Positions 1 to 30,735 of a stretch of 64,000 nt of DNA are shown piece after piece. The notes under the pieces were generated by a model. That model was not told the origin of the DNA and did not search any database. It saw only the letters and a list, made by a program, of their open reading frames with translations. The position numbers were made by a program, and so were the translations under genes. Source of the stretch: Strigamia acuminata (lineage: Eukaryota; Arthropoda; Chilopoda; Geophilomorpha; Linotaeniidae); contig CASHSZ010000033.1 in NCBI GenBank assembly GCA_949358305.1, positions 95,001-159,000 on the forward strand. Direction: 5' to 3'. The first letter of the stretch is position 1. Each line of letters starts with the position of its first letter.

Positions 1-2988
1 GTAACTGACTTTACCAATGGGATAGGTAGGCAGGAAATCCTTCAACAAATATTCTGTCATACGGACGCCCACTACTGTGGCGGTCAGCTCTAGGCGTGGT
101 AGGGATAACTTTGTCATCGGAGCAATGCGTCCTTTGCTTAAAAGCAACTGACAATCTCCAGACGCAGCGCGGACATAAATTGCGCATCCATACGCTTGCG
201 GGCTTGCGTCGCAATATACTTCAAGATCTAATGATTGACCCGAATAAGTTCCCATCCATCGCTTGACCTTTGCGTCAATAAGACGTTGCAAGTCGGTGTA
301 CCATTTGGTAACTCGCTCAGAACTCTCGTCCGAAATCCTATCGTCCCACTTGATCTCTCGCCCCCACATGGACTGCAAAAGTAATTTCATCGGCAAGATG
401 ACCGGTGAGATCAATCCGAGAGGATCGAAGACCGATGCCACCAAAGATAAGATACCCCTTCTTGTTCTGGTAATCTCAACTCCTTCAGGTATCCTAAACA
501 TGATAACATCTTCTTGAACTTTCCAAACAATACCCAACATCTTGATAATGTCCAAGTCCTTAAATTCCTCTGCTCTCATATGAAAATCTTCTCCCTTAAG
601 CGCGTTGAAAACCTCAGCACTTGAGGTAGCCCACTTTACAAGAGGCAATTTTCCCTCATCTAGAATAGTTCGTAAATTCACGCAATGTTGCGTCGTCTTT
701 GCAGCGTTATCGTCGCCGGACGTCAGGTCATCCATGTAAATACCCTTGTCCAGGGCGTCTGCTTCCTTCGGAAAAAGGACTAAATATAGACGCCCCTGCG
801 CTCGAATAACCGCGCAGAGCAAAAACGGGGATGAGTTGACACCGAAAGGCACAACTATCATCCGTAACACAACCAAATGGTCCCATAAGTTTTGCCATGA
901 ATATTCGTTCTGAAAATATTCGTCGGAAACCCACAAAAATCTTAAGTAATCGCAGTGTTTTAACTTAATCAATACCTGAAGAAAGGCTTGTTTAATGTCC
1001 GCTATCGCAACCACACAGTAAAGTCGGAAACGAACAATTACTGGCACAATGTCCGGATTAAGGCTCGGACCAGGGTATAAGCAGTCGTTTAAAGAAGGAA
1101 CTCCTTTCTTTGAAGACGACGCGTTAAAAACTACTCTAAACTTCGTTGTATCTCTATCCTCCCTAATCACTGGATGGTGCGGAATAACATAAACGCCAGA
1201 CTTCTTGTATCTTTCTGCAAGAGGTACTACTTCTGCGTGCTCTTCGCGCACGTAGTCCCACATGGCTTTGTGGTAGCGTTCTTTGTGGTCACTGCTGCTG
1301 TCAATCCTTCTCAACGTGTGCGACAACTGATTCAATGCCAAATCCCAATTGGATTCCAACGAACCAATTCGCTCATTGAAAGGTAAGCAAACTTCATAAC
1401 GACCATCTTCTCTTCTTGTCTTTGTTTTCTCGAAACGATCTCTAATGAAATCGGAATCACGCTCGCCGGCACTAATACCAACGGCTTCCAAACTCCATAG
1501 CTTCTCCAAGTCTCGGTCTGTTTTAATATCACAGGTGTTGCAGCAAGAAACGTCGCGCGAGCTCTCTGAGAAGACATCAGTCGACCCAGCTGCTCCTGAT
1601 AACACCCACCCAAAGATGGTGTTCACCAAACCCAGTCGACTATCCAGGCGTTTGCGTCCATCCAAGCAGATTTCCCACCAGACATCAACGCCAAGCAAGA
1701 TATCAACATTGCCTGCAGTTGAAGGTAAGTCCTCAGCCAATTCAAACCCCAAATTCTTAACTTTCTGAATAACATCTGGGCTGGCTATCCCATACACATG
1801 TGGTAAACTCTTTGCGCTTAAAGCTGTCACCTTGAGCTCTTTGGCTCCGTGTCGAGACTGAAGCAAGACTTTATATACGTCATAAGACGTTGACCCTGCG
1901 TTCTCCTCATTGAGACGTTGGGCTGTGGCCTCTATTGACCCACAACTCTTCAGCCGTATCCGGTCAGCTACGCTCTTAAGAATATAAGAACGGTGACTTC
2001 CAGGATCTAACATCCCACGTACCGTGTGCGAACCACCAGATTTCGTCTTTAATTCCGCTGTAAAAATCATCAATTGGAGCGTTGACGAGATCGCCAAGGA
2101 AACGTTAGCACTAACGTCCTTCGACTTCTCTGCCCCACCTGGACTCGTAACGATTGCCTTCCTGCAAATGCTGGAGTGGTGTCGACCACCGCACGTCTTA
2201 CAAGACGTCTTCAATCGGCATCTAATGGCCATATGTCCGCTTTGCAGACAATTGTAGCAAAGCCGATTCTTTTGCGCAATGGCAGACTTGTCCTCAACGC
2301 TAATCTCTTTTTTGCAAAAGGAGTTAGCGTGCCCTTCTTTGCAAAAAATGCAAGTCGCTTTATCGACTGTCAACTTGGGATTACTCGAGCTCTTTGTCCC
2401 TTGAGCCAATGCACAAGTGGACATTGTCCCTTTTCGTTGCTCTTTTTGGTCGCTCTTATCGACCTTGTCCTTCTTAATGTGAAGGAGATTGGATCCCATA
2501 ACGTCTTCTACTTGCTCTAGAAGCTTAACTTCTGTGGCAAAAAAATCCAAAATCGTCAATAAGTTTGATGATTTGGTACCGTGGGATCTGTAAAACTGAG
2601 TGACCATAATCGGCGGGAACTTCCTCAACACGTCAGGTGCTAAAAGAAAACCCGCTGTCTGAACAGGAACACTTAACTGCTCAAGCACCCTAATGGTTGC
2701 AGACAACTTTGTAAGTTGCGCCTTCACCGCCTTGACAGGGTGTACTTCTGTGATTGGTTTCAATTCCTTGAGAGACTTGAGCAAAGCTGCCCTCTGCGCT
2801 TCGTCGTCCCCATAACTTCGAATCAATTCACTACGAGCTAAGTCGTAGGATCCATCCACTTGTCTAAAGGTGGATATTAGCGTTGCTGCTTCACCTGTGC
2901 AGAATGACTGCAGGTATTGCAGCTTCTCTACTTCCGAGAGGTCTGAGTTTGTGTGCACTGTTGAGTCAAATCGGTCCAAAAAGGACTT
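1..2988 (-). CDS. BEL/Pao Gag(C-terminal part)-protease-reverse transcriptase-RNase H, partial
   Basis: Minus-strand frame, open from 2988 to base 1 and leaving the window. In order: rest of the DUF1759-type Gag domain (about 2988-2560); zinc knuckles around 2330-2170, including a CX2CX4HX4C set with C codons at 2257, 2248 and 2218; an aspartic protease of the DUF1758/Pao type with the active Asp of LDPGS at 2005-2007; the closing FGWVLSG segment near 1615; RT with one catalytic Asp in ADIKQAF at 997-999 and the YMDD box at 727-738; RNase H with Asp of YCDAS at 208-210 and Glu of RLELTA at 88-90. Integrase would follow to the left. Gag-Pol would act in cytoplasmic particles, copying element RNA into cDNA. 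The N-terminal part of the same protein is at 9579-10071. Disrupted by the nested element, otherwise no lesion seen. Confidence 0.92.
2985..2988. other. Target-site duplication, left copy (ACTT)
   Basis: ACTT directly precedes the TG of the left LTR at 2989; the same ACTT follows the right LTR at 9579-9582. Removing one copy plus the element restores the host gag frame. Four bases fits the 4-6 bp duplications known for BEL/Pao integrases. Confidence 0.88.
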
Positions 2989-4346
2989 TGTTGCTAGCAA
3001 CATAAAGGAAAGCTGCTAAACGTCTTAAAAATTAGTCATCTGGAATTATTAAAAAGGGTTTTTAATATTTATCTTAGATTGGGAATTTAATTAGACACTT
3101 ATTTGAATATAAGTCTTCTTTGAGTTAGTTTGAGTGAATTTCTCAGTACTGGTTGATCTGACCGGATAAATCTGGGAAGAAAAGAGTTTTTACATTAGTT
3201 ATTTATCCACTTAGAATTTATTTTCTATCTTGTTTACCTGTGTTATGCATGTTTTGATGTTTCCAAGTGTTTTCCTGTTTCCAGTCCACTACTGTCAATG
3301 TAGTGACAAGGTGTAATGATGCTCTCAGACAGCAAAAGGGTACTAGAATGAGAAATGTATGTTATTATCAGTTTTAAGCTGTTTCAATCAATTTCTGTTT
3401 GTTTTCTGTATATTACTAACCAATTAAGCGTTTTGTTAACTTAGATTGTGTGTAGCCTGTCTAGTGAGCTAATTTCAAGCCTTTCTATCTTCCTGCAAGT
3501 GATCTCTGTTTACATTGTCGGCCATTACTGTGGGAGTGGTCTACTTGTATCTGTAAAGAGAGGAGAAAATGTTTAATCCCAAAGAGTTTTTGTGGGTTCT
3601 GATTAATAATTAATCACTTAATTATTATGCAATGTAAAAGTGTTAAGTTTAAGATTTATCTGTGTTGATTTATAACTTAACTTCTGCACTTACTGTAAAG
3701 TTGCCAGCTCATTGGTCTAAAATGTCTTTACTTATTCTTTTCTCTATTTTATGAGTTGTTCAGTGTGTTTTAGAGTGAATAATTTAGTTCTCAACGAGCA
3801 TTGTGGTTAGAGACTGTTGTTAATGTATACTTTTGCATTTAATGTCAAATACTTGCTGTTAGGCTTATGTGTTTTCAACTATTAACTTCTACGGTAGTTT
3901 TGTTGTGCCAGCAGTACTTATTTCTCTTTACAAGCACTTAGAGACCTCTGTAACTTTAAGTGCAAGTGTCCTTATACAATGTGGAGATAGTTACACTTGT
4001 TGTTTCTTATTATTGTTAAAGTGTGACTTCTTTGTAATATCCTCGTGATTCAATTGTAGTAGTCTTGTTAAGAATTTAGAGAATAAAATGGTTGCTTTTT
4101 ATTTCTCTCCAAGTCTCATTTCTCTATACAACCAGAAAGCAATGTGCAGTGAGTAGAAAAATCCTCCTTCCTCCTCCTTGAACTCACCAGTGGCAGATCA
4201 TCATGTGAAGCAGCAAGTTCAAGTCCAGTGTTTGCATTTCTTCAAGTCTTTGGCCAACTTCTGTGTATCAATTTTAGCCAAGCAGCAGTCAAGTATTGCC
4301 GCCCCTCCTTCTGGCCTGGTTGTCGCCTGCGACCTTGCCAGAAACA
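2989..4346 (+). repeat. 5' LTR of the thymidine-kinase element (1358 bp)
   Basis: Starts TGTTGCTAGCAACA and ends CAGAAACA, giving canonical TG...CA ends. It matches 8221-9578 in length and, as far as I can read, in every base. A polyadenylation signal AATAAA is at 4082-4087, so R/U5 probably begins downstream of it. Short open frames inside it are also present in the other LTR and are not taken as genes. Confidence 0.95.
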
Positions 4347-5167
4347 ATTTGGTACCGTGAACCAAGGATTTCTTCCAGTTATCTCAGTGGACCTTCATGT
4401 GTGCTGCAAAATTCATCAGTGGGTTTTGTTCTCAACCTGTGCAAAGCTTTTATGTGTAAAGTGCCATTGAAGTTGTGCCACTACAGTGAAGTGTATGCTC
4501 TCGTCCGCCTTTCACAGGCAAAAAAGTGGGTTTTTCAAGTTGGATTCTCAAATTGTCAAGATGGTCAAGATGTTTTTCAACTTGGATCAAGCAAGGCTTC
4601 GAGAGTACGAGCGATCCTGCACGACAATCAATTCCAAACACAACGCAATGTACATCCTACAAGAAGATTTGAAGAAATAATTATTAAGAATTATTATTTA
4701 AATAGAATAATATCCGAATTTGCTGCTGTAATTATTTCAAAAAGAGTTTTTGATTAGAAACTGGTGTAGTTGGGGGGAGAAGAAGTTTAAGTCTTAACAG
4801 TTTGAATAAATTCTCGATTCCAGTTTGTGGAATTTAGAGAATATCCAGTGAATTAGTGAATAATACCAAGCTTTAGTGTTGGTATCCCAATTTAAAACGA
4901 GTATCTAGTCAGAAACTCAATTGTGAAAATAAGAGAATTGTCAATTACCTTTAATTATTGAATTTTGGGGGTTAATTTGCCAATCCTGTTAACATCCCGT
5001 GTGTTTCAATCCTGTTAACAGTTTGTGGATATCCATCCTGTTTTTGTGTGTTCAGTAAATCCTAGAGTGTAAAAGAATTAGACAATTTCTTGTTAACCAA
5101 TTTAGTCAGTTAAGTTGAGTTTGAATCCTGAACTGATCTTTGAATTCTTCATTTCTCGGTGAGGATT
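4347..5167 (+). other. 5' leader of the thymidine-kinase element
   Basis: Non-coding stretch between LTR and ATG. It begins AATT and then the primer site. From 4680 on it is AT-rich with no convincing frame. The motif CAATCCTGTTAACA occurs around 4980 and again about 27 bp later. Packaging signals would be expected here but cannot be identified by eye. Confidence 0.75.
4350..4367 (+). other. Primer-binding site of the thymidine-kinase element
   Basis: TGGTACCGTGAACC starts three bases after the LTR end. Its complement ends in ..TCACGGTACCA, the form of a tRNA 3' end with CCA. I cannot name the tRNA. Confidence 0.7.
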
Positions 5168-8100
5168 ATGGCTACATTATCCGCTGCTGATCTCGAGGAA
5201 AAGGAGGTCATTTGGAAAGCAAAGGCTCAAGGAGCCGAGGATCTGCTGGGATCTTCAGTCAACATTCTAGACGGAGGAGAGCTGGAAGCCATGCAAATAA
5301 CGGTTGACCAGCAATTGAGTGATCTCGCCGACGAATTGAAAGCTCTTAAAGACGAGTCAAAAAGAGAGGACTATTTAGCGGGGCTTCAACGAATTGAAGA
5401 CATTAGAACCAGAGTAAATTTATTGAAACAAAGAGCAAAAGTGTCTGGAAAAATGGCAGGGCAATTTGGTTCCCATCCGGGACAGAATTCCAGTTTAAAC
5501 CAGACGTCCGCTTCATCTAGGAGAAACACGAGATTGCCGAAAACCGACATTGCCAAATTTAGTGGCGATGCAACTGAATATAGAGGTTTTGCGAATTTAT
5601 TCGAATCAGCAGTTGATCAGAACACGGAGCTTTCGAACGTGGAAAAGCTTATATATCTGAGATCATGCTGCACTGGGGCTGCAGAATCCGCAATCAAGTC
5701 GTACCCAATAACTGATGACGCCTACCCATTAGCGAAAAATACATTGGAGAGTCTATTCGGATCTGAAAACACGCAGAGAAATGCGATTTCAAAGATGATT
5801 AGGGAGTCGAAACCCGTTTTCGATCTCTACCCAATCGAGCCACTTAAAGCTCTATTCACGTCATTGGCATCTGCTGTCCGGACCATGGCGCAACTGTCTG
5901 TGTCAGTTGACACTACTGGAACGTACCTTATTCCAGAGCTACTTAGAAAATTTCCACCGGAGATCTCCCAACGTTTTTACCGAAAGCATCAAGGAAAAGT
6001 TGATGATGTTAACGTTTTTCTGGACTTCGTAGCAACCGAGATACAACTGGCTGAATTGTCGGAAGAAAGCGTTCTCCTTAAGCGCGCTCATCTGAAGAAG
6101 TCAGAAAAATTTGAGAAAACTTCAAAGGAAACAAGAGAAAGACCAACTGGAACCATGTCCTCATTCGTGACTTCCGAAAATGGAAAATTGAGTATGAATT
6201 CCAAGTCAAATCCAAACCGCAAACCCGCCTGCGCTTATTGTGATGGTGATCACGCACACGCAAATTGTGATGCGGATCTCGATGTACCAGCGAGGATCAA
6301 AATAGTGAAGAAGAAACGACTTTGTTTCAACTGCTTGAGATATAACCACACAGCCAAAGAATGTACCGTGAAGTTTTGTTGTCGCTTGTGTGGTGGAAGA
6401 CATCACACATCGATCTGCAACAAAAACAACAAAGAAAAAGCGATTACACCAAAAGAAGAAAACGTGTCTACTAATGTATCGCTTACCGAGTCGGTGGAGA
6501 TTCAACTGATGGTCTTCACTGCTCTTTTTGTGAAGAAAAATGGAGACATGTACCCCGTCCGCGGATTACTAGATCCAGGAAGCCATCGCTCCTACGTCAC
6601 GAAGAGACTAGTAAATAAATTCCGGATGCAAAAGATCGAGACACTACACACGATGACACAGTGTCTGCTCAACAAAAAGCCAGTTCCGACGACACATGAT
6701 GTCTTTAGATTCGAACTACAATCAAGACACGGAACAAAAAAGACATCAATCCTTGCATTAGAAACCGACACACTCCCGAAAGTCAAAGGGATAATTGGAG
6801 CAGAAGCCATAAAGCAAGTCCAATCACTCGGACTTGAGATGGCTGAGATACATCCGTCAGAATCGGAAGACATTGACGTCTTATTAGGAAGCAACGCATG
6901 GTGGAAGATTTGTCAAGGTGGAAGCCGAAAAATCAACGACGAGTTGGGATTAATGGAGACAATTTTTGGGTGGATTCTAAACGGTCGACTGAAACCAAAC
7001 AACCCGCTTGAAGAAAACATGGCAGCGTGCAACATTTCTTGCATGGCGGTCGAGTCCAAAGAAGAAGTGATCTCAAATCAACCTGAAAATGACGAAAACA
7101 AAATAGTCCAATTAATTCCGAAATCACTGCCCAACATGAATGGCGAACCCGGTGTGAATAAACAGACAGACGTCACACCTTCTTGTTTTGCCGCGAGCCT
7201 CTCCAGTGGTCTGGAGAAAGAGGAACTGGACACCACCCTCCAAAAAACGAAAAAGTCGTTCAAGGATGGAGGATTGGTCAACAGAACTCCAAGCTCGGAC
7301 ATGAAGCCGGAATTACGAGGGCGAAATCAGTTAGAGTCAGGGAGAAAGAACGTCGAATTACTTACAAACCAAGTGCCCAGTTTACCCAAATTGTGTGCAA
7401 TCGTGAGATGGAGTGGAAACGTGATTCTGAATTTCTGGAAAAAGAAAATTGATTTGTCAACCAATCAAAAGGGAATTCATCTCATCATTGGTCCAATGTA
7501 TGCGGGGAAAACGACCAAGTTATTGAAGCTTTTAGAAAAGGAAGAGAAGACGTCGTCCCTGCTAATTAAACACTCCAATGACGATCGTTACAGTAAAACC
7601 GAAGTCGTGACCCACGACGGTCATCGACGAGAAGCAATCGCGACCAGTAGCCTAACCAATGCTGTGGAAAAAACGAAATTAGTGAAGACAATCGGAATTG
7701 ACGAAGGACAGTTTTTTCCCGACATTTTTACTTTTTCAAATGAAATGGCTGAGCAAAAGAAAAAGGTAATAGTCGCCGCATTAGACGTCGACTTCAAGAG
7801 GAAGCCATTTGATCAGATATCCGAGTTAGTTCCACTAGCCGAGTCTGTTGTGAAACTACAAGCAAAATGTTATTTTTGCGGAGATAAAGCTGAATTTTCA
7901 AGACGAATTTCGCACGAAACCCGAGTCAAGATGATAGGAGGGATCGACAAATACAAACCAACCTGTCGAGTATGTTTCTCAAAGCCCATGAAGTCCCTAG
8001 AGACGAAAAGGAAAATCATCAACGGAATTATTCGACTTAGTTGTATGATTGTCAACCGAAGAATACCTCCGTGGATACCAAATTTGATCCGTCAAAGAAT

Positions 8101-8185
8101 CATGCCACCCAGAGTGGAATACAAAAAGGTGAAAGAGGTCTCCCAAATATTATCATCAAAGACCAGAAGTAATCAAACTAAATGA
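5168..8185 (+). CDS. Gag-aspartic protease-thymidine kinase fusion polyprotein (1005 aa)
   Basis: Start is the ATG at 5168. Residues about 122-265 are a Gag DUF1759-type domain (LPKTDIAKFSGD). Zinc knuckles begin at C355, C386 and C405. The protease has active Asp469 in LDPGS and ends near residue 607 with FGWILNG, matching the outer element's protease end. After a linker of about 160 residues without known motifs comes a TK1-family thymidine kinase (769-940): P-loop GPMYAGKTT (775-783), DEGQFFPD (845-852, Glu846 the expected catalytic base), ALDVDFKRKPF, a zinc ribbon C901/C904 with C933/C936, and GGIDKYKPTCR for nucleoside binding. TK1 makes dTMP from thymidine and ATP. RT, RNase H and integrase are absent, exactly where Pao Pol would begin. 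A basic tail of about 65 residues follows. No intron, stop or frameshift; all key kinase residues seem present. Cellular versus viral origin of the kinase is unresolved. Confidence 0.93.
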   Translation: MATLSAADLEEKEVIWKAKAQGAEDLLGSSVNILDGGELEAMQITVDQQLSDLADELKALKDESKREDYLAGLQRIEDIRTRVNLLKQRAKVSGKMAGQFGSHPGQNSSLNQTSASSRRNTRLPKTDIAKFSGDATEYRGFANLFESAVDQNTELSNVEKLIYLRSCCTGAAESAIKSYPITDDAYPLAKNTLESLFGSENTQRNAISKMIRESKPVFDLYPIEPLKALFTSLASAVRTMAQLSVSVDTTGTYLIPELLRKFPPEISQRFYRKHQGKVDDVNVFLDFVATEIQLAELSEESVLLKRAHLKKSEKFEKTSKETRERPTGTMSSFVTSENGKLSMNSKSNPNRKPACAYCDGDHAHANCDADLDVPARIKIVKKKRLCFNCLRYNHTAKECTVKFCCRLCGGRHHTSICNKNNKEKAITPKEENVSTNVSLTESVEIQLMVFTALFVKKNGDMYPVRGLLDPGSHRSYVTKRLVNKFRMQKIETLHTMTQCLLNKKPVPTTHDVFRFELQSRHGTKKTSILALETDTLPKVKGIIGAEAIKQVQSLGLEMAEIHPSESEDIDVLLGSNAWWKICQGGSRKINDELGLMETIFGWILNGRLKPNNPLEENMAACNISCMAVESKEEVISNQPENDENKIVQLIPKSLPNMNGEPGVNKQTDVTPSCFAASLSSGLEKEELDTTLQKTKKSFKDGGLVNRTPSSDMKPELRGRNQLESGRKNVELLTNQVPSLPKLCAIVRWSGNVILNFWKKKIDLSTNQKGIHLIIGPMYAGKTTKLLKLLEKEEKTSSLLIKHSNDDRYSKTEVVTHDGHRREAIATSSLTNAVEKTKLVKTIGIDEGQFFPDIFTFSNEMAEQKKKVIVAALDVDFKRKPFDQISELVPLAESVVKLQAKCYFCGDKAEFSRRISHETRVKMIGGIDKYKPTCRVCFSKPMKSLETKRKIINGIIRLSCMIVNRRIPPWIPNLIRQRIMPPRVEYKKVKEVSQILSSKTRSNQTK

Positions 8186-8220
8186 TGGGTTGTTCGCACT
8201 TTCTTTTCGCCGGCAATCTA

Positions 8221-9578
8221 TGTTGCTAGCAACATAAAGGAAAGCTGCTAAACGTCTTAAAAATTAGTCATCTGGAATTATTAAAAAGGGTTTTTAATAT
8301 TTATCTTAGATTGGGAATTTAATTAGACACTTATTTGAATATAAGTCTTCTTTGAGTTAGTTTGAGTGAATTTCTCAGTACTGGTTGATCTGACCGGATA
8401 AATCTGGGAAGAAAAGAGTTTTTACATTAGTTATTTATCCACTTAGAATTTATTTTCTATCTTGTTTACCTGTGTTATGCATGTTTTGATGTTTCCAAGT
8501 GTTTTCCTGTTTCCAGTCCACTACTGTCAATGTAGTGACAAGGTGTAATGATGCTCTCAGACAGCAAAAGGGTACTAGAATGAGAAATGTATGTTATTAT
8601 CAGTTTTAAGCTGTTTCAATCAATTTCTGTTTGTTTTCTGTATATTACTAACCAATTAAGCGTTTTGTTAACTTAGATTGTGTGTAGCCTGTCTAGTGAG
8701 CTAATTTCAAGCCTTTCTATCTTCCTGCAAGTGATCTCTGTTTACATTGTCGGCCATTACTGTGGGAGTGGTCTACTTGTATCTGTAAAGAGAGGAGAAA
8801 ATGTTTAATCCCAAAGAGTTTTTGTGGGTTCTGATTAATAATTAATCACTTAATTATTATGCAATGTAAAAGTGTTAAGTTTAAGATTTATCTGTGTTGA
8901 TTTATAACTTAACTTCTGCACTTACTGTAAAGTTGCCAGCTCATTGGTCTAAAATGTCTTTACTTATTCTTTTCTCTATTTTATGAGTTGTTCAGTGTGT
9001 TTTAGAGTGAATAATTTAGTTCTCAACGAGCATTGTGGTTAGAGACTGTTGTTAATGTATACTTTTGCATTTAATGTCAAATACTTGCTGTTAGGCTTAT
9101 GTGTTTTCAACTATTAACTTCTACGGTAGTTTTGTTGTGCCAGCAGTACTTATTTCTCTTTACAAGCACTTAGAGACCTCTGTAACTTTAAGTGCAAGTG
9201 TCCTTATACAATGTGGAGATAGTTACACTTGTTGTTTCTTATTATTGTTAAAGTGTGACTTCTTTGTAATATCCTCGTGATTCAATTGTAGTAGTCTTGT
9301 TAAGAATTTAGAGAATAAAATGGTTGCTTTTTATTTCTCTCCAAGTCTCATTTCTCTATACAACCAGAAAGCAATGTGCAGTGAGTAGAAAAATCCTCCT
9401 TCCTCCTCCTTGAACTCACCAGTGGCAGATCATCATGTGAAGCAGCAAGTTCAAGTCCAGTGTTTGCATTTCTTCAAGTCTTTGGCCAACTTCTGTGTAT
9501 CAATTTTAGCCAAGCAGCAGTCAAGTATTGCCGCCCCTCCTTCTGGCCTGGTTGTCGCCTGCGACCTTGCCAGAAACA
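8221..9578 (+). repeat. 3' LTR of the thymidine-kinase element (1358 bp)
   Basis: Second copy of 2989-4346; AATAAA at 9314-9319. The preceding 35 bases (8186-8220, TGATGGG...ATCTA) contain the stop context but no clear polypurine tract. Confidence 0.95.
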
Positions 9579-9582
9579 ACTT
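9579..9582. other. Target-site duplication, right copy (ACTT)
   Basis: Same four bases as 2985-2988, directly after the CA that ends the right LTR. Confidence 0.88.
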
Positions 9583-10071
9583 GAACTCCACAACTTCTCC
9601 ACCAAACTTTGCTATTTCCAACTTTGGAAGTTTAGCGTTGCGATTTCTTCGCGCTAATTGCGAAAGACTACTTTGTTGTGAAACATTAGTCTGATTCTGG
9701 CTTGTATTGGCAGACAACGTCGACGCATTTGCTGTCCAATGCGACACAAATCGTTGCGCCACTTGGCTACGGTGCTTCAACACTGCCATAGGCGTGTAAT
9801 AACCCTCAATCTCCTTAAGGTTGGTCATGTACTGATCTCTGGGTATCAGTGGTTGCATCAGGTTCAGGTCATCAACCATCTTCTTAATCTGTTCCTCTGC
9901 GGCTAAAGCAGTTGCTTCTAGCTCTGCAGGATCGGTAATGGCCTTTGATTCCTTCAACAACTCCTCAACTGCGACCCCAACCGTCTCAAATCGAGAGGTC
10001 AAAACGTCCAACTCATCCGGCTTAGGAATTGTAACCGGTGTAGGTGAGGTTCTTCCTGGTGACGTAGACAT
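9579..10071 (-). CDS. BEL/Pao Gag N-terminal part of the outer element
   Basis: ATG at 10071-10069 begins the outer element's Gag. About 160 residues are present: a Thr/Pro-rich start, an acidic helical region, an Asn/Ser-rich linker and then the first residues of the DUF1759-type domain (LPKLEIAKFGGEVVEFK). The frame is broken here by the nested element and resumes at 2988 in register. The equivalent motif in the inner element is LPKTDIAKFSGD, so the two Gags are related but clearly diverged. As it stands translation would run into the inner LTR and stop at about 9451. Confidence 0.9.
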
Positions 10072-10837
10072 GCTGATCGCACCTGAAAAGGTTGGAAAGC
10101 AAAGACAATTACTACGGTCACCTTACACCAACACACAACACACACGTTAAACTTAAGACGAACCTTTAGAATCTGAGTGCTTAAACACCCAAACTCTCTG
10201 CTATACAGACAAACTCCAAGAGGATTTCTAAAATAATTTGAGTGGTTGAATCACAGACTCACTCAAAATCTCAACTGAAACCTTTTTAGAATAAATCCCT
10301 AACAATTCTGAGAATGTAAATACTCAGACTGACTAACTCTCTTCTAAAATTACAAGTAAACTGCTTCTGTTTACAAATAAATGCTCTAAGAGAACTTAAA
10401 TAATCCCTGTTCACAAGAATTCCACTAAAAATCATGCAAACTATAGACTATTCTAGCTAAATCTGTTGCTCTCCTGCTTATGCAGTTATAGTAGAGCCAA
10501 AACTTATTTTATATCACTTAAAATGCAATAGCAAGACTCATATCTCCCCCAAAAAGGACACAAATAAAAACCCAAAGCAAAACCCATCAAAATCACAAAG
10601 AAACAACTGAATGTCATCTTCAAAAACATGGCGAACTGCTGCACATTGCGTTGTGTCACTTGAACTGGACCCCTGGCATTGATGGTCGCTTCTAGACGAT
10701 TCTCAGCTGCACAAACTTGATCGGAAAGACATGCGGAACCAGCCGCTAACTGCACAAACCGTCCTGTTGTCACAAATCCCCTGAACCGTCTGTGAAGTGG
10801 CCAAACTCTAGCTTCACGCACGGTGATCAAACGCGCA
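10072..10837 (-). other. 5' leader of the outer BEL/Pao element
   Basis: AT-rich region between primer site and gag start, similar in length to the inner element's leader (about 800 bp). A 163-codon open frame (10995-10504) runs across LTR end, primer site and leader and is therefore unlikely to be a gene. Confidence 0.7.
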
Positions 10838-10859
10838 CGAATCCGGGTCACAGGCACCA
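10838..10859 (-). other. Primer-binding site of the outer element
   Basis: Read on the plus strand the stretch ends ..TCCGGGTCACAGGCACCA, a tRNA-like 3' end with T-arm and CCA; its complement is the primer site 16 bases inside the LTR edge at 10876. One base more than a standard acceptor arm. The tRNA identity is not assigned. Confidence 0.7.
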
Positions 10860-10875
10860 AAAAACCAACTTCCCC

Positions 10876-12146
10876 TGTTGCAAACAGACATGTCGAACTC
10901 GGAAGTCGCGTGGTACATTCATAGGCAACTGTCCTGTTGCGCATCCATGATCGTATAGTAGAAATTCCAGCAGCAGAAAGCGTTAGGCCTAGCATTAGGC
11001 CTAGTTCTCAAACTGTAGATCAAATGGGAAAAACATCTCAGCTAATGGGCAAGCAAATGTGTCTTCAAGGAGGAGGAGAGTCAGCTTGGCTCTCTACTCA
11101 CTCATTCTCTGGGAACTCATTTCAGAAATAATCCAAAGGAAGAACATCAAAGAAAGAGAAAAGAATAACAACTTATTTATTCTAAATCAACCATAACAAG
11201 CTTCTTCTAGCAACAGCTAGTAACAACAGTAACTCACTCTCAACCTAGCAACAACAAGCGCCTAGCAACCGTGAACAATGGCGCTAAAATAGGCTTATTT
11301 ACAAGCGACAATTACTCATTATAAATAACTTATTGCCTCCAAAGAGGGCGCTACGTGTCTCAAACTTAACCCTTTTACATCAAATTGATAACAAGTAATA
11401 AAAGCTTAATCTTAACATCTATTAGAGGCATAAAATACATAAATAAACAAGTATTAACAATTCCCATTCTTAGTTCCAGAGGAAAGCCAACTTTCCTTCT
11501 CAAAGACAAAAGCCAACCGCTCATCATGCAAGATGGCGGCACAGCAACTTGCTTACAGCTGTGCAGGCGAACAGGAGCGAGCCAGACAGACTTCCATAGC
11601 CGCCCTTGACCAGACATCGACGCAAGGACCTTCCAAACAGCGTGGGGACTCGAACGAGAGTCCAAACCAAGGCGTATCGACGCCGCTCTAAACACACACG
11701 CGGATCCGATGCGTCCAAATGCCGTCACTGTCACGGGAGCTTTACGCCGCTCGCCACCTGCTGCCTCACGTCTTGGAAAGTCGCTGACCCCCTAAAACAT
11801 CAAGCAAAAGGTAAACAACAATCAAATAAAATATGCCTATCTCAAAACAACTCTAATAATTCTTAAACTAATACACAGAATTACTAAACCACTAAAACGA
11901 TTACATCAAAACGACCACAAGTGACCGACAACACATCTCCCGACCAATCCAGGTGCGACTGGCAGCATGACGACCGTCAAGGACATCACCAAACAAGACC
12001 GCTGGTCAGCCAAACAACCGGACATCTCAGATATGTCTCCAACTTGTGTCAAAAACTAAAAAGCAAATTAAAAAGTCAAATCTTCTTTTCAGAAGCCAAA
12101 ACGTGGAAAACTTCTAAATCTTTTTGTTGCGTTCCTGCTCGCAACA
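10876..12146 (-). repeat. 5' LTR of the outer BEL/Pao element (about 1271 bp)
   Basis: Ends are TGTTGC (10876) and GCAACA (12146), a 6-bp inverted pair like the start of the inner LTR. The left edge is followed by the primer site, the right edge by the satellite. The middle (about 11500-11800) is GC-richer than the surroundings. The partner LTR is outside the window, so the edges are inferred from termini and primer site rather than from a second copy. Confidence 0.75.
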
Positions 12147-15100
12147 GTGCTAAGTCAACTGTGATGAGATCAAAAGTCTATTCTCCCAAATCATCGGTTG
12201 GATGTTTCTAAAACTTACATTGGAGCCTTCTACTAAGGTTTAAACACTATTTCTGAACATTCAGAGACATTGGTCTTTTGGTGTTTGTGCTAAGTCAACT
12301 GTGATGAGATCAAAAGTCTATTCTCCCAAATCATCGGTTGGATGTTTCTAAAACTTACATTGGAGCCTTCTACTAAGGTTTACACACTATTTCTGAACAT
12401 TCAGAGACATTGGTCTTGTGGTGTTTGTGCTAAGTCAACTGTGATGAGATCAAAGTCTATTCTCCCAAATCATTGGTTGGATGTTTCTAAAACTTACATT
12501 GGAGCCTTCTACTAAGGTTTAAACACTATTTCTGAACATTCAGAGACATTGGTCTTGTGGTGTTTGTGCTAAGTCAACTGTGATTAGATCAAAAGTCTAT
12601 TCTCCCAAATCATTGGTTGGATGTTTCTAAAACTTACATTGGAGCCTTCTACTAAGGTTTAAACACTATTTCTGAACATTCAGAGACATTGGTCTTGTGG
12701 TGTTTGTGCTAAGTCAACTGTGATGAGATCAAAAGTCTATTCAACCAAATCATCGGTTGGATGTTTCTAAAACTTACATTGGAGCCTTCTACTAAGGTTT
12801 AAAGACTATTTCTGAACATTCAGAGACATTGGTCTTGTGGTGTTTGTGCTAAGTCAACTGTGATGAGATCAAAAGTCTATTCTCCCAAATCATCGGTTGG
12901 ATGTTTCTAAAACTTACATTGGAGCCTTCTACTAAGGTTTAAACACTATTTCTGAACATTCAGAGACATTGGACTTGTGGTGTTTGTGCTAAGTCAACTG
13001 TGATGAGATCAAAAGTCTATTCTCCCAAATCATTGCTTGGATGTTGCTAAAACTTACATTGAAGGCTTCTACTAAGGTTTAAATACTATTTCTGAACGTT
13101 CAGAGACATTGGTCTTGTGGTGTTTGTGCTAAGTCAACTGTGATGAGATCAAAAGTCTATTCAACCAAATCATCGCTTGGATGTTGCTAAAACTTACATT
13201 GAAGGCTTCTACTAAGGTTTAAACACTATTTCTGAACATTCAGAGACATTGGTCTTGTGGTGTTTGTGCTAAGTCAACTGTGATGAGATCAAAAGTCGAT
13301 TCTCCCAAATCATCGGTTGGATGTTTCTAAAACTTACATTGGAGCCTTCTACTAAGGTTTAAACACTATTTCTGAACATTCAGAGACATTGGTCTTGTGG
13401 TGTTTGTGCTAAGTCAACTGTGATGAGATCAAAAGTCTATTCTCCCAAATCATTGGTTGGATGTTTCTAAAACTTACATTGGAGCCTTCTACTAAGGTTT
13501 AAACACTATTTCTGAACATTCAGAGACATTAATCTTGTGGTGTTTGTGCTAAGTCAACTGCGATGTGAAATGAGCTCAAAATTTTTTTTTCAAAATTTAA
13601 TGCTTGGGTGTTGCTAAAACTTATATTGAAGGCTTCTACTAAGGTTTAAACACTATTTCTGAACATTCAGAGACATTGGACTTGTGGTGTTTGTGCTAAG
13701 TCAACTGTGATGAGATCAAAAGTCTATTCTCCCAAATCATTGCTTGGATGTTGCTAAAACTTACATTGAAGGCTTCTACTAAGGTTTAAATACTATTTCT
13801 AAACGTTCAGAGACATTGGTCTTGTGGTGTTTGTGCTAAGTCAACTGTGATGAGATCAAAAGTCTATTCAACCAAATCATCGGTTGGATGTTTCTAAAAC
13901 TTACATTGGAGCCTTCTATTAAGGTTTAAACACTATTTCTGAACATTCAGAGACATTGGTCTTGTGGTGTTTGTGCTAAGTCAACTGTGATGAGATCAAA
14001 AGTCTATTCTCCCAAATCATCGGTTGGATGTTTCTAAAACTTACATTGGAGCCTTCTACTAAGGTTTAAACACTATTTCTGAACATTCAGAGACATTGGA
14101 CTTGTGGTGTTTGTGCTAAGTCAACTGTGATGAGATCAAAAGTCTATTCTCCCAAATCATTGCTTGGATGTTGCTAAAACTTACATTGAAGGCTTCTACT
14201 AAGGTTTAAATACTATTTCTGAACGTTCAGAGACATTGGTCTTGTGGTGTTTGTGCTAAGTCAACTGTGATGAGATCAAAAGTCTATTCAACCAAATCAT
14301 CGCTTGGATGTTGCTAAAACTTACATTGAAGGCTTCTACTAAGGTTTAAACACTATTTCTGAACATTCAGAGACATTGGTCTTGTCGTGTTTGTGCTAAG
14401 TCAACTGTGATGAGATCAAAAGTCTATTCTCCCAAATCATCCGTTGGATGTTTCTAAAACTTACATTGGAGCCTTCTACTAAGGTTTAAACACTATTTCT
14501 GAACATTCAGAGACATTGGTCTTGTGGTGTTTGTGCTAAGTCAACTGTGATGAGATCAAAAGTCTATTCTCCCAAATCATCGGTTGGATGTTTCTAAAAC
14601 TTACATTGGAGCCTTCTACTAAGGTTTAAACACTATTTCTGAACATTCAGAGACATTGGACTTGTGGTGTTTGTGTTAAGTCAACTGTGATGAGATCAAA
14701 AGTCTATTCTTCCAAATCATTGCTTGGATGTTGCTAAAACTTACATTGAAGGCTTCTACTAAGGTTTAAATACTATTTCTGAACGTTCAGAGACATTGGT
14801 CTTGTGGTGTTTGTGCTAAGTCAACTGTGATGAGATCAAAAGTCTATTCAACCAAATCATCGCTTGGATGTTGCTAAAACTTACATTGAAGGCTTCTACT
14901 AAGGTTTAAACACTATTTCTGAACATTCAGAGACATTGGTCTTGTGGTGTTTGTGCTAAGTCAACTGTGATGAGATCAAAAGTCTATTCTCCCAAATCAT
15001 CGGTTGGATGTTTCTAAAACTTACATTGGAGCCTTCTACTAAGGTTTAAACACTATTTCTGAACATTCAGAGACATTGGTCTTTTGGTGTTTGTGCTAAG

Positions 15101-18100
15101 TCAACTGTGATGAGATCAAAAGTCTATTCTCCCAAATCATCGGTTGGATGTTTCTAAAACTTACATTGGAGCCTTCTACTAAGGTTTAAACACTATTTCT
15201 GAACATTCAGAGACATTGGTCTTGTGGTGTTTGTGCTAAGTCAACTGTGATGAGATCAAAAGTCTATTCTCCCAAATCATCGGTTGGATGTTTCTAAAAC
15301 TTACATTGGAGCCTTCTACTAAGGTTTAAACACTATTTCTGAACATTCAGAGACATTGGTCTTTTGGTGTTTGTGCTAAGTCAACTGTGATGAGATCAAA
15401 AGTCTATTCTCCCAAATCATCCGTTGGATGTTTCTAAAACTTACATTGGAGCCTTCTACTAAGGTTTAAACACTATTTCTGAACATTCAGAGACATTGGT
15501 CTTGTGGTGTTTGTGCTAAGTCAACTGTGATGAGATCAAAAGTCTATTCTCCCAAATCATCGGTTGGATGTTTCTAAAACTTACATTGGAGCCTTCTACT
15601 AAGGTTTAAACACTATTTCTGAACATTCAGAGACATTGGTCTTGTGGTGTTTGTGCTAAGTCAACTGTGATGAGATCAAAAGTCTATTCTCCCAAATCAT
15701 TGGTTGGATGTTTCTAAAACTTACATTGGAGCCTTCTACTAAGGTTTAAACACTATTTCTGAACATTCAGAGACATTGGTCTTGTGGTGTTTGTGCTAAG
15801 TCAACTGTGATGAGATCAAAAGTCTATTCTCCCAAATCATTGCTTGGATGTTTCTAAAACTTACATTGGAGCCTTCTACTAAGGTTTAAACACTATTTCT
15901 GAACATTCAGAGACATTGGTCTTGTGGTGTTTGTGCTAAGTCAACTGTGATGAGATCAAAAGTCTATTCTCCCAAATCATCGGTTGGATGTTTCTAAAAC
16001 TTACATTGGAGCCTTCTACTAAGGTTTAAACACTATTTCTGAACATTCAGAGACATTGGTCTTGTGGTGTTTGTGCTAAGTCAACTGTGATGAGATCAAA
16101 AGTCTATTCTCCCAAATCATTGGTTGGATGTTTCTAAAACTTACATTGGAGCCTTCTACTAAGGTTTAAACACTATTTCTGAACATTCAGAGACATTGGT
16201 CTTGTGGTGTTTGTGCTAAGTCAACTGTGATGAGATCAAAAGTCTATTCTCCCAAATCATTGCTTGGATGTTGCTAAAACTTACATTGAAGGCTTCTACT
16301 AAGGTTTAAACACTATTTCTGAACATTCAGAGACATTGGTCTTGTGGTGTTTGTGCTAAGTCAACTGTGATGAGATCAAAGTCTATTCTCCCAAATCATT
16401 GGTTGGATGTTTCTAAAACTTACATTGGAGCCTTCTACTAAGGTTTAAACACTATTTCTGAACATTCAGAGACATTGGTCTTGTGGTGTTTGTGCTAAGT
16501 CAACTGTGATGAGATCAAAAGTCTATTCAACCAAATCATCGGTTGGATGTTTCTAAAACTTACATTGGAGCCTTCTACTAAGGTTTAAACACTATTTCTG
16601 AACATTCAGAGACATTGGTCTTGTGGTGTTTGTGCTAAGTCAACTGTGATGAGATCAAAAGTCTATTCTCCCAAATCATCGGTTGGATGTTTCTAAAACT
16701 TACATTGGAGCCTTCTACTAAGGTTTAAACACTATTTCTGAACATTCAGAGACATTGGACTTGTGGTGTTTGTGCTAAGTCAACTGTGATGAGATCAAAA
16801 GTCTATTCTCCCAAATCATTGCTTGGATGTTGCTAAAACTTACATTGAAGGCTTCTACTAAGGTTTAAATACTATTTCTGAACGTTCAGAGACATTGGTC
16901 TTGTGGTGTTTGTGCTAAGTCAACTGTGATGAGATCAAAAGTCTATTCAACCAAATCATCGCTTGGATGTTGCTAAAACTTACATTGAAGGCTTCTACTA
17001 AGGTTTAAACACTATTTCTGAACATTCAGAGACATTGGTCTTGTGGTGTTTGTGCTAAGTCAACTGTGATGAGATCAAAAGTCGATTCTCCCAAATCATC
17101 GGTTGGATGTTTCTAAAACTTACATTGGAGCCTTCTACTAAGGTTTAAACACTATTTCTGAACATTCAGAGACATTGGTCTTGTGGTGTTTGTGCTAAGT
17201 CAACTGTGATGAGATCAAAAGTCGATTCTCCCAAATCATCGGTTGGATGTTTCTAAAACTTACATTGGAGCCTTCTACTAAGGTTTAAACACTATTTCTG
17301 AACATTCAGAGACATTGGTCTTGTGGTGTTTGTGCTAAGTCAACTGTGATGAGATCAAAAGTCTATTCTCCCAAATCATTGGTTGGATGTTTCTAAAACT
17401 TACATTGGAGCCTTCTACTAAGGTTTAAACACTATTTCTGAACATTCAGAGACATTAATCTTGTGGTGTTTGTGCTAAGTCAACTGCGATGTGAAATGAG
17501 CTCAAAATTTTTTTTTCAAAATTTAATGCTTGGGTGTTGCTAAAACTTATATTGAAGGCTTCTACTAAGGTTTAAACACTATTTCTAAACATTCAGAGAC
17601 ATTGGTCTTGTGGTGTTTGTGCTAAGTCAACTGTGATGAGATCAAAAGTCTATTCAACCAAATCATCGGTTGGATGTTTCTAAAACTTACATTGGAGCCT
17701 TCTACTAAGGTTTAAACACTATTTCTGAACATTCAGAGACATTGGTCTTGTGGTGTTTGTGCTAAGTCAACTGTGATGAGATCAAAAGTCGATTCTCCCA
17801 AATCATCGGTTGGATGTTTCTAAAACTTACATTGGAGCCTTCTACTAAGGTTTAAACACTCTTTCTGAACATTCAGAGACATTAATCTTGTGGTGTTTGT
17901 GCTAAGTCAACTGCGATGTGAAATAAGCTCAAAATTTTTTTTTCAAATTTTATTGCTTGGGTGTTGCTAAAACTTATATTGAAGGCTTCTACTAAGGTTT
18001 AAACACTATTTCTGAACATTCAGAGACATTGGTCTTGTGGTGTTTGTGCTAAGTCAACTGCGATGTGAAATGAGCTCAAAATTTTTTTTTCAAAATTTAA

Positions 18101-19395
18101 TGCTTGGGTGTTGCTAAAACTTATATTGAAGGCTTCTACTAAGGTTTAAACACTATTTCTGAACATTCAGAGACATTGGACTTGTGGTGTTTGTGCTAAG
18201 TCAACTGTGATGAGATCAAAAGTCTATTCTCCCAAATCATTGCTTGGATGTTGCTAAAACTTACATTGAAGGCTTCTACTAAGGTTTAAATACTATTTCT
18301 GAACGTTCAGAGACATTGGTCTTGTGGTGTTTGTGCTAAGTCAACTCTGATGAGATCAAAAGTCTATTCAACCAAATCATCGGTTGGATGTTTCTAAAAC
18401 TTACATTGGAGCCTTCTACTAAGGTTTAAACACTATTTCTGAACATTCAGAGACATTGGTCTTGTGGTGTTTGTGCTAAGTCAACTGTGATGAGATCAAA
18501 AGTCTATTCTCCCAAATCATCGGTTGGATGTTTCTAAAACTTACATTGGAGCCTTCTACTAAGGTTTAAACACTATTTCTGAACATTCAGAGACATTGGA
18601 CTTGTGGTGTTTGTGCTAAGTCAACTGTGATGAGATCAAAAGTCTTTTCTTCCAAATCATTGCTTGGATGTTGCTAAAACTTACATTGAAGGCTTCTACT
18701 AAGGTTTAAACACTATTTCTGAACATTCAGAGACATTGGTCTTTTGGTGTTTGTGCTAAGTCAACTGTGATGAGATCAAAAGTCTATTCTCCCAAATCAT
18801 CGGTTGGATGTTTCTAAAACTTACATTGGAGCCTTCTACTAAGGTTTAAACACTATTTCTGAACATTCAGAGACATTGGTCTTTTGGTGTTTGTGCTAAG
18901 TCAACTGTGATGAGATCAAAAGTCTATTCTCCCAAATCATCGGTTGGATGTTTCTAAAACTTACATTGGAGCCTTCTACTAAGGTTTACACACTATTTCT
19001 GAACATTCAGAGACATTGGTCTTGTGGTGTTTGTGCTAAGTCAACTGTGATGAGATCAAAAGTCTATTCTCCCAAATCATTGGTTGGATGTTTCTAAAAC
19101 TTACATTGGAGCCTTCTACTAAGGTTTAAACACTATTTCTGAACATTCAGAGACATTGGTCTTGTGGTGTTTGTGCTAAGTCAACTGTGATGAGATCAAA
19201 AGTCTATTCTCCCAAATCATTGCTTGGATGTTGCTAAAACTTACATTGAAGGCTTCTACTAAGGTTTAAACACTATTTCTGAACATTCAGAGACATTGGT
19301 CTTGTGGTGTTTGTGCTAAGTCAACTGTGATGAGATCAAAGTCTATTCTCCCAAATCATTGGTTGGATGTTTCTAAAACTTACATTGGAGCCTTC
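12147..19395. repeat. 140-bp satellite array, about 52 monomers
   Basis: Monomer begins GTGCTAAGTCAACTG and recurs every 140 bp (12147, 12287, 12427...). Main type A has CGGTTGGATGTTTC and TTGGAGCC; type B has GCTTGGATGTTGC and TTGAAGGC. A divergent type C, with GCGATGTGAAATGAGCTC then an A/T run, occurs near 13559, 17485, 17910 and 18058. A few monomers are 139 bp (for example near 12451, 16377 and 19337). An A-B-B' trimer (about 420 bp) recurs at about 12840, 13975, 14520 and 16620, i.e. higher-order structure. No coding potential. Confidence 0.97.
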
Positions 19396-19424
19396 TAGGT
19401 TAGGTTAGGTTAGGTTAGGTTAGG
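19396..19424 (+). repeat. Interstitial TTAGG telomeric repeat, about 6 copies
   Basis: The satellite monomer is cut at CCTTCTA and continues directly as GGTTAGGTTAGG, followed by GTGCAAA. TTAGG is the usual arthropod telomere motif. The G-rich strand reads left to right. Confidence 0.9.
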
Positions 19425-28686: not shown

Positions 28687-29555
28687 GATTCATCAAATCA
28701 ATTTGGATGTCACGTCTGTCCCCAAGAACACATGTATGCATCCCCTGGATGGAGCAGTTATTGACAATTTATTGTTGACTAATTCGCACGGTGATATATC
28801 GTTGCAGTTTTTATTTGTTTTTATGTGACAACTTGGGATTTAAATGATCTCGCCAAATAATCACGTTTTCCGGGTGCATGCATGACCTTTTTCTGGCGGC
28901 TGTACTGTACAGCAATTTCAGAAGCATTGCAGATACACGTTGTTGACAATTGTGACATTGTGAGTTATCTGGGAACTTTTATCTGAGGTCAGATGTCAGA
29001 CTCAGTCATGTATTTAGCTTTCAGATTCACCTATATCTAGCACACTGCACGAACTAATGATCAAGTCTGAATTGTATTTCACTATAGATCCACCAACCGA
29101 GTGGAGGCAGTGCTTTTGACAATGTACAATCAATAAACTTTGTGTTTTTTTGCTGCATGCCACCGAGTGTTGACAGTGCTTTTGAAAATGTGGAGTAAAT
29201 ATTGATATTCGTGATAAAGTGACCATGACATTTCTACTGCAAGCAGACACAGTTACTAATCAACATTCAAGGATGTTAATATTTTATTAATATATTTCTT
29301 TTCACAAAATCAATTCACAACATGATTGAAATTGTTGCCAATTTTCAACAGTGTGTTTCGGAAATTATGTTTGGATTCTTATTTGTCTGACATCTAGTGG
29401 CGAGTAAACGAATTAAACGATTCGGTCTTTCGGGTTTCTTAAGGATTTCCCGGCTCGTCAACGGAACCACAGGCAAAGCTTAATGTGTTTAACCTAATTT
29501 GTTTTAAAATAAAACAATTTTTATAATAATTTTTAAGTTACTAATTCTTTTTCAG

Positions 29556-29556
<1 letters not shown>

Positions 29557-29596
<40 letters not shown>
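29557..29596. repeat. CAGG microsatellite
   Basis: About ten CAGG units; the same in copies 2 (49055-49095) and 3 (62850-62890). Confidence 0.95.
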
Positions 29597-29673
29597 GTGG
29601 CATTTCATGTTTGAAGTGGCTTTTTTGTTTAATTTTTAATGATAGTGGCTTATTTTTTTGTTGTTTTTATAGG

Positions 29674-30364: not shown

Positions 30365-30735
30365 AGCAGGTTTTTTTGGGTGATTTATTTTGGATGATGT
30401 TTGGTGCAGTCACCCGTTTTTCTTTTATTCTTTTTGTCAATTTTGTCAATTTTGGATGTGTTTGTGTCAATTGTAGATGCGATTTAGTGCAAAAATTGTG
30501 TTAAAATATTGATTTTAACACAATTTATCGGCAAATTGTGATTAAAAATGCAATTTTCGTTTGTTTTTGTGGGAATTTAAGGAAGAAATGTGTTTTAAAA
30601 TGACATTTTATTATTATTATTATGAAATTGGCACAAAATCAAATGAAAAAAGCATTTCAAAACACACTAGTTTTGCTTCTAATGAAACTGTCAGACAGAG
30701 ATTTGTAGGAAATTTCTTTGGGAATAATTCCCATT

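What the first reader, a model, noticed from the sequence alone, without database searches (positions are those of the whole stretch)
2989..9578. LTR retrotransposon whose RT-integrase part is replaced by a thymidine kinase
Directly visible: intact 1005-codon frame with Gag, zinc knuckles and Pao-type protease (Asp469), then a full TK1-type kinase (P-loop 775-783, DEGQFFPD 845-852, zinc ribbon C901/904/933/936, GGIDKYKPTCR), bounded by apparently identical LTRs and a 4-bp target duplication. Retroelements and retroviruses with dUTPase are known. I know of no BEL/Pao element with a thymidine kinase, so novelty is an inference. A kinase raising dTTP could help cDNA synthesis in cells with low nucleotide pools, with RT and integrase supplied in trans.
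Basis: partly seen in the sequence, partly recalled or inferred. Interest (0 to 1): 0.95.

Follow-up and report, generated by a model that had tools for sequence, protein, structure and literature searches.

The report
Jumping gene carrying a thymidine kinase
A recently active, non-autonomous retrotransposon family of a centipede carries, in place of its own copying enzymes, an apparently working DNA-building-block enzyme (thymidine kinase), a combination that our searches did not find described before.

Summary
The window (assembly identified by inference as Strigamia acuminata, a centipede) holds a 6,590-bp BEL/Pao-type LTR element at 2989-9578: identical 1,358-bp LTRs, a 4-bp duplication (ACTT), and one intact 1005-codon frame with Gag (DUF1759), zinc knuckles, a retropepsin-like region and a full TK1-type thymidine kinase (Pfam E 2.4e-54; model matches human TK1, target TM 0.96). 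No RT, RNase H or integrase. Leaving the element out rejoins the Gag frame of the BEL element that it interrupts. It is not a one-off: 54 TK rows of this family (47 full frames) and 44 (37 full) of a second, ~57% identical family. Their TKs group with other TKs of this genome, not with a poxvirus TK, and are under purifying selection (dN/dS 0.18), less tightly than Gag. A related 892-codon family keeps at most a TK remnant yet spread, so the kinase is not indispensable. An integrase-bearing family (1768-codon frames) in the same satellite-rich blocks shares the 3' pre-LTR motif and LTR terminus: the candidate helper. Best reading: a trans-mobilised Gag-protease-TK retrotransposon whose kinase feeds dTTP to its own cDNA synthesis (inferred, untested).

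The parts
2985..2988 (.). target-site duplication, left (ACTT)
2989..4346 (+). 5' LTR, 1358 bp, TGTTGCTAGC...AGAAACA
   Evidence: identical to the 3' LTR
4348..4370 (+). presumed primer-binding site TTTGGTACCGTGAACCAAGGATT
   Evidence: position directly after the 5' LTR; the pattern with A/C at one place has 71 matches in the genome, control 0, 69 of 71 within 3 kb upstream of an A or B Gag row; the tRNA was not identified
5168..8185 (+). single frame, 1005 codons plus stop: Gag-protease-thymidine kinase
5558..5983 (+). Gag, DUF1759 (residues 131-272)
   Evidence: E 2e-17
6230..6418 (+). three Cys/His (zinc-knuckle-like) motifs (residues 355-417)
   Evidence: zf-CCHC E 0.14 only
6488..7042 (+). 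retropepsin-like protease region, active-site LLDPGS (D469)
   Evidence: motif; homologues match DUF1758/Asp_protease_2 weakly
7043..7462 (+). fast-evolving linker (residues 626-765)
   Evidence: 28% identity between families A and B, dN/dS 0.63 within A
7463..7981 (+). TK1-type thymidine kinase (residues 766-938), P-loop 7490-7516, DEGQFFPD 7700-7723, zinc ribbon Cys 7868-7879 and 7964-7975
7982..8182 (+). C-terminal tail; its RRIPPWIPNLIRQRI part (8057-8101) is conserved in families B and F
8209..8216 (+). pre-3'LTR motif GCCGGCAA, at the place of a polypurine tract, shared in close form with families B, F and the candidate helper
8221..9578 (+). 3' LTR, 1358 bp
9579..9582 (.). target-site duplication, right (ACTT)
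1..2988 (-). rest of the interrupted BEL element: DUF1759, RT (weak), Peptidase_A17; runs off the window
9583..12146 (-). start of the interrupted BEL element (LTR from 12146 by its TG, leader, Gag start), itself abutting the 140-bp satellite
12147..19397 (.). 140-bp tandem satellite, 51.6 copies, of the kind that flanks two of three family B copies read

Best explanation
It is a non-autonomous BEL/Pao-type LTR retrotransposon ('Gag-PR-TK' element, family A) of the centipede Strigamia acuminata. Shown: one frame encodes Gag, a protease-like region and a complete TK1-type thymidine kinase; identical LTRs, target duplication, dozens of copies with full frames; a second family B with the same plan; purifying selection on the TK. 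Inferred: the kinase came from a centipede-lineage TK1 (as an intronless copy) and was joined to a Gag-protease frame before families A, B and probably F split; F then lost the kinase core. The Gag-PR-TK polyprotein builds, or co-assembles into, virus-like particles that bring the kinase to the site of reverse transcription; it phosphorylates thymidine, raising dTTP where host salvage is low, which favours cDNA synthesis of the RNA it is packed with. RT, RNase H and integrase come in trans, most likely from an autonomous BEL family (H) that shares the pre-3'LTR motif and LTR terminus and lies in the same satellite-rich blocks.
For: Anatomy and exact borders. TK fold: human TK1 entries matched at E 4e-43 to 1e-42; model mean pLDDT 82.7, 145 of 251 residues at 90 or more, target TM 0.96 to several human TK1 chains. 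Copies: 54 A rows (34 frames of 1013 and 13 of 1009 codons) and 44 B rows (37 frames of 995/1002) among 150 scored of 203 candidates. Selection: A1013 against A1009 (one copy each), TK 13 synonymous and 9 non-synonymous differences, dN/dS 0.18, Fisher p 1.1e-4 against neutrality, while the linker is 0.63, p 0.33; B copies L021 against L023 and L022, TK 6 syn/4 non-syn and 4/3; A against B, dN of TK 0.365, Gag 0.363, protease 0.274, linker 0.687. TKs of A+B one group 99/97, all five TK groups of this genome one side of a branch 98/92; A+B with the poxvirus TK rejected, p-AU 0.0105. Helper: motif GCCGGCAA-GACGC-TGTTGCTAGCAAC, 29 exact places (control 0), found downstream of 8 of 8 rows with 1768-codon frames; one such element read at both ends only (L048, L049), with DUF1759 and with DUF5641 and Integrase_H2C2.
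Against: Family F (26 rows, 19 with 892-codon frames; one copy read) lacks the kinase core and still multiplied, and family G, nearer to A/B in Gag, has no TK, so the kinase is not required for spread. Within A the TK (0.18) is less constrained than Gag (0.01), and the tail is not constrained (0.82, p 0.68). The TK comparison rests on 22 differences, and differences pile up at residues 701-850 (40 of 85), which hints at recombination. The primer-binding site of A/B is not that of the helper element read; the helper's RT was not read; one of its 29 places is on a contig (C12, X by length) without A/B rows. No expression, enzyme or particle data. The host's own TK1 was not identified.
Confidence: 0.7

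Rival explanations
1. The TK is an inert passenger, picked up by chance and carried along by an element that is mobilised in trans.
For: Family F multiplied without a kinase core; non-autonomous elements tolerate cargo; TK is less constrained than Gag within A.
Against: Purifying selection on the TK between A subfamilies, p 1.1e-4; TK dN between A and B equals that of Gag while the linker's is nearly twice as high; catalytic motifs intact in the A and B copies read.
Confidence: 0.13
2. The TK fold is kept as a structural or oligomerising part of the Gag-PR protein (TK1 enzymes are tetramers, recalled), not for catalysis.
For: In family F the conserved tail and a P-loop-like stretch remain although the core is gone.
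Against: Nucleotide- and thymidine-binding residues and the zinc ribbon are kept, not only the fold.
Confidence: 0.08
3. The element-borne TK serves the host: the host's own TK1 gene is lost or weak and dispersed TK copies replace it.
For: The TK matches scored fall into the repeat groups A-E with single-exon frames; no spliced host TK1 was seen (150 of 203 and 150 of 200 candidates scored).
Against: Exon-split genes score low in these searches and 50 or more candidates were not scored, so absence is not shown; A and B copies sit in satellite-rich blocks, an unlikely place for a household gene.
Confidence: 0.06
4. Assembly artefact or host TK pseudogene fused by mis-joining.
For: None found.
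Against: 84 of 98 A/B rows at separate places have full-length Gag-TK frames; target duplication and clean empty site.
Confidence: 0.01

Closest known systems
Autonomous BEL/Pao LTR retrotransposons (Gag DUF1759, DUF1758 protease, RT, Peptidase_A17, integrase, DUF5641)
   Same: Gag and protease region are homologous (39% identity to the two autonomous-type elements read in part), LTR ends TG...CA, 4-bp duplication, shared pre-3'LTR motif
   Different: no RT, RNase H or integrase; TK in their place
LTR elements and retroviruses with dUTPase (bdelloid rotifer Juno/Vesta/TelKA elements, vertebrate retroviruses; PMC5408684, passages read)
   Same: a nucleotide-metabolism enzyme inside the polyprotein; presumed help to cDNA synthesis
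   Different: those keep their own RT and integrase; the enzyme is dUTPase, not a thymidine kinase
TR-GAG type non-autonomous LTR elements of plants (search listing only; details recalled)
   Same: Gag kept, pol missing, trans-mobilised
   Different: plant elements, no added enzyme known to me
Cellular and poxviral TK1-type thymidine kinases (PF00265)
   Same: whole domain, catalytic motifs, fold
   Different: fused behind a protease, with a family-specific tail; tree separates it from the poxvirus TK

Membership tests
BEL/Pao LTR retrotransposon | LTRs with TG...CA ends and a short target duplication | tested here: met
BEL/Pao LTR retrotransposon | BEL-type Gag (DUF1759) | tested here: met
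   E 2e-17; Gag-protease identity to autonomous-type elements
BEL/Pao LTR retrotransposon | DUF1758-type protease | tested here: inconclusive
   motif LLDPGS present; no Pfam match in this copy, weak in B, F, G
BEL/Pao LTR retrotransposon | RT, RNase H/Peptidase_A17, integrase | tested here: not met
   no such match in the frame; the element is therefore filed as a non-autonomous derivative, not as an autonomous BEL/Pao member
TK1-type thymidine kinase | P-loop, DEGQFF, zinc ribbon with 4 Cys, TK fold | tested here: met
TK1-type thymidine kinase | phosphorylates thymidine | not testable with these tools
   needs an enzyme assay
Trans-mobilised non-autonomous LTR element | no pol, but recent dispersal of many copies | tested here: met
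Trans-mobilised non-autonomous LTR element | cis sequences shared with an autonomous helper | tested here: inconclusive
   3' motif and LTR start shared; primer-binding site not shared with the one helper read

The most novel reading that the evidence does not exclude
Thymidine kinase is a recurrent tool of mobile DNA in this genome: at least two LTR families (A, B) plus three further repeat types (C, D, E; at least 59 places) carry a single-exon TK of one clade, at least 157 places in all, as if dTTP supply in the germ line limited mobile-element replication and elements competed for, or shared, the gene to overcome it; family F shows the loss of the kinase once others supply it.
Probability: 0.35. 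Interest if true: 0.93.

Novelty: new variant of a known kind. Interest (0 to 1): 0.85.

Why it matters
Retroelements are known to carry dUTPase, which keeps uracil out of cDNA; a thymidine kinase would act on the supply side, by making the precursor. It would show that a retrotransposon can trade its own polymerase for a nucleotide-supply enzyme and live by trans-mobilisation, and it makes testable the idea that dNTP supply limits retrotransposition in animal germ cells, with natural TK-plus and TK-less sister families in one genome.

Tried and rejected
Poxvirus origin of the TK: rejected, p-AU 0.0105, though the poxvirus row is a long branch. Gag-TK proteins elsewhere: none at E<=0.001 among 6,173 candidates (only proteins of 0.55-1.75 times the query length sharing exact words). 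A spliced host TK1: not seen, but the searches cannot show absence. Autonomous element with the A/B primer-binding site: 69 of 71 matches lie within 3 kb upstream of an A or B Gag row; the other two (C6, C7) were not explained. Tail of A/F in the helper's C-terminus: no convincing match. Satellite search returned mostly one contig, 40 of 643 candidates scored, so it does not map the satellite. Centromere targeting: only suggested by clustering; not shown.

The comparison of A/B positions with autonomous BEL positions used the 150 best-scoring of 1068 candidates, a family-biased sample; by my reading of the coordinates none of the chromosome-placed ones lies inside an A/B block (two lie just beside one, C8 6.76 and 6.80 Mb). 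The nearest relatives do lie in the blocks, so block location is a trait of the wider clade, not of the TK.

Results weaker than first thought: family F is not matched by the Pfam TK model even at E<=10; its remnant rests on my A/B profile, where the tail gives 24.4 bits and the P-loop-like stretch alone only 10.4 (E 0.006). The two C copies compared differ by 1 synonymous and 3 non-synonymous changes (dN/dS 0.95), E copies by 6 and 7 (0.28), and one C copy read (L040) has an altered P-loop.
Full report
What was checked. The finding places a BEL/Pao LTR retrotransposon at 2989-9578 with a thymidine kinase in place of RT-integrase. A repeat search found the LTR pair; a direct comparison showed 1,358 identical base pairs, 2989-4346 and 8221-9578, TG...CA, flanked by ACTT on both sides. 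The single frame 5168-8185 has 1005 codons. Pfam finds TK (PF00265, E 2.4e-54, residues 770-937) and DUF1759 (E 2e-17, residues 131-272) and no RT, RNase H or integrase domain at E<=1. The soft part is the protease, which in this copy rests on a motif and on weak Pfam matches of homologues.

Where it sits. The genome handle G000 has 237,517,015 bases, a longest contig of 66,985,994 and a 15,068-base contig with COX1. The best of the listed COX1 matches is Mecistocephalus marmoratus (87%; a geophilomorph centipede, recalled). These lengths equal those of the Strigamia acuminata assembly in PMC10556566 (first of three parts of the text and one passage read), so I identify the species by inference. 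The element lies inside another BEL element on the minus strand, whose Gag frame becomes continuous when the insert and one ACTT are left out (1,159 codons to the window edge) and which has DUF1759, a weak RT match (below Pfam's cut-off) and Peptidase_A17. That element in turn abuts a 140-bp satellite array of 51.6 copies (12147-19397).

It is a family, and there are two. Searching the genome with the TK domain gave 150 scored rows out of 203 candidates. By identity and frame length I group them as A, 54 rows (90-100% identical to this TK; 34 frames of 1013 codons between stops, 13 of 1009, 7 others); B, 44 rows (55-57%; 37 frames of 995 or 1002, 7 others); C, 13; D, 34; E, 5. A second query added 7 D places. 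The Gag part gives the same two families (92 scored of 1232 candidates). The LTR query gave 40 scored matches of 122 candidates, 99-100% identical. A and B are 58% identical over Gag-protease and 56% over TK.

The kinase. Human TK1 entries are matched at E 4e-43 to 1e-42. A model from 33 sequences has mean pLDDT 82.7, with ten-residue means of 90 or more over most of the kinase core and low values in the last 40 residues, and matches several human TK1 chains with target TM 0.96 and rmsd 1.0-1.2. Between subfamilies A1013 and A1009 (one copy each, window and L045) the TK has 13 synonymous and 9 non-synonymous differences, dN/dS 0.18 (Fisher p 1.1e-4); Gag is 0.01 and protease 0.17; linker (0.63) and tail (0.82) do not differ from neutrality. 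Between A and B synonymous sites are saturated over Gag, protease and TK, but dN is 0.365 for TK, 0.363 for Gag, 0.274 for protease and 0.687 for the linker. So the TK is clearly constrained: as much as Gag over the long term, less than Gag in the recent comparison.

Origin of the kinase. In a 48-row tree A+B form one group (99/96) and the five TK groups of this genome join at 82/91, with one long unnamed row among C-E. In a 32-row tree without most long rows, A+B is 99/97, all five groups are one side of a branch at 98/92, and placing A+B with the poxvirus TK is rejected at p-AU 0.0105; the tool warns of long branches meeting. The simplest reading is a centipede-lineage TK1, captured as an intronless copy. 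The host TK1 gene itself was not found; the searches are blunt for exon-split genes.

Loss of the kinase. A Gag query revealed family F: 26 rows, 19 with frames of 892 codons (150 scored of 592 candidates). The one copy read (L046) continues after the protease into a stretch with GPMFLGKKEKLL and ends with KRIPEWISNLLRQRI, matching the tail behind the TK of A and B; a profile of A and B TK-plus-tail scores 34.0 bits (E 3.3e-10) on it, the best of 300 shuffles 5.0 bits; most of that is the tail (24.4 bits), the P-loop-like stretch alone gives 10.4, and the Pfam TK model finds nothing at E<=10. The catalytic core is gone. Family G (one locus, L047, 897 codons) has hydrophobic segments and no TK. 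A Gag-protease tree of 7 rows puts F outside G+A+B and rejects A+B+F as one group, p-AU 0.0056. So either the TK was gained before F split off and was lost in F and G, or parts were exchanged by recombination. Either way a kinase is not indispensable.

How it moves. The protease query shows, after A, B and a few relics and G, relatives with frames up to about 1768 codons and more, many in the same blocks (150 scored of 1029 candidates). One with a 1768-codon frame was read at both ends, not in the middle (L048, L049): DUF1759 at the start, Integrase_H2C2 and DUF5641 at the end. Directly before its 3' LTR stands GCCGGCAAGACGC followed by TGTTGCTAGCAAC; A has GCCGGCAATCTA and the same 13 bases, B and F have close variants. 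The A/B/F form has 125 matches, 100 listed, each with the A, B or F spacer, control 0. The helper form has 29 exact matches and 11 with one mismatch, control 0, and lies downstream of 8 of 8 rows with 1768-codon frames. Of the 29, 26 lie on C1, C5, C8, C11 and C13 in or near the A/B blocks, 2 on small contigs that also hold A or B, and 1 on C12 (X by length), which has no A/B row. Shared end sequences and location make this family the best candidate for supplying RT, RNase H and integrase; the primer-binding sites differ, so it is a candidate, not proven.

Location. The 78 chromosome-placed A+B rows occupy 25 of 453 half-megabase bins; random placement gives a mean of 71.7 and a minimum of 64 in 2,000 trials (lengths of two chromosomes were taken from the paper). 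By length match to the blocks lie on chromosomes 1, 4, 6, 7, 9 and the last 2.4 Mb of Y (C13). Two of the three B copies fetched (L022, L023) are flanked by the 140-bp satellite. Pericentromeric heterochromatin is a guess; PMC4244043 (passages) mentions one long metacentric and seven telocentric pairs in S. maritima, which gives no positions here.

Mechanism. Shown: anatomy, recent insertion, multi-copy families, selection on the kinase, relatives and a candidate helper. Inferred: particle assembly with the kinase inside or attached, local dTMP and dTTP production, benefit to cDNA synthesis, helper identity. It works like a retroelement with dUTPase (PMC5408684, passages) in that a nucleotide-metabolism enzyme travels in the polyprotein, but it has given up its polymerase.

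Novelty. Paper searches returned nothing; 25 (8 papers), 61 (3) and 66 (12 listed of 68) returned no title or abstract on a retrotransposon with a thymidine kinase; 67 (12 listed of 69, on dUTPase and nucleotide metabolism) gave the bdelloid paper, whose text has no occurrence of 'thymidine'. Subscription papers, preprints and Repbase were not searched. I rate it a new variant of a known kind: a trans-mobilised LTR element with a captured enzyme that, as far as these searches go, is new for retroelements.

Noticed in passing
L030-L032; at least 41 places: Group D: a 190-codon single-exon TK frame inside a dispersed repeat of at least 9.8 kb, about 98% identical between the three copies read, with no other recognisable gene found.
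   Followed up: partly
L024-L029, L036, L039, L040; L033-L035: Groups C (13 rows) and E (5 rows): single-exon TK frames in other large repeats; C against D TK dN/dS 0.11, E copies 0.28, two C copies 0.95 on 4 differences. What these repeats are is unknown.
   Followed up: partly
L046 (C13:9689700-9692800): Family F: Gag-protease frame of 892 codons with a TK remnant, 19 of 26 rows with full frames.
   Followed up: partly
L047 (C14:38600-41600): Family G: Gag-protease frame of 897 codons whose C-terminal part has hydrophobic, possibly membrane-spanning stretches instead of TK or pol.
   Followed up: no
window 42009-47291 and 52990-58269; 28967-31672 and 48467-51172: Nearly identical kilobase-scale duplicated blocks (99.9% and 99.7%), the second with 121-bp tandem units.
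   Followed up: no
G000, chromosome-scale contigs: Very many BEL/Pao pol frames, often about 1,740-1,816 codons and apparently open, genome-wide: 150 scored of 1068 candidates.
   Followed up: no
A1013 (window) against A1009 (L045): Differences between the subfamilies pile up around residues 701-850 (40 of 85), as if the linker-TK part had been exchanged by recombination.
   Followed up: no
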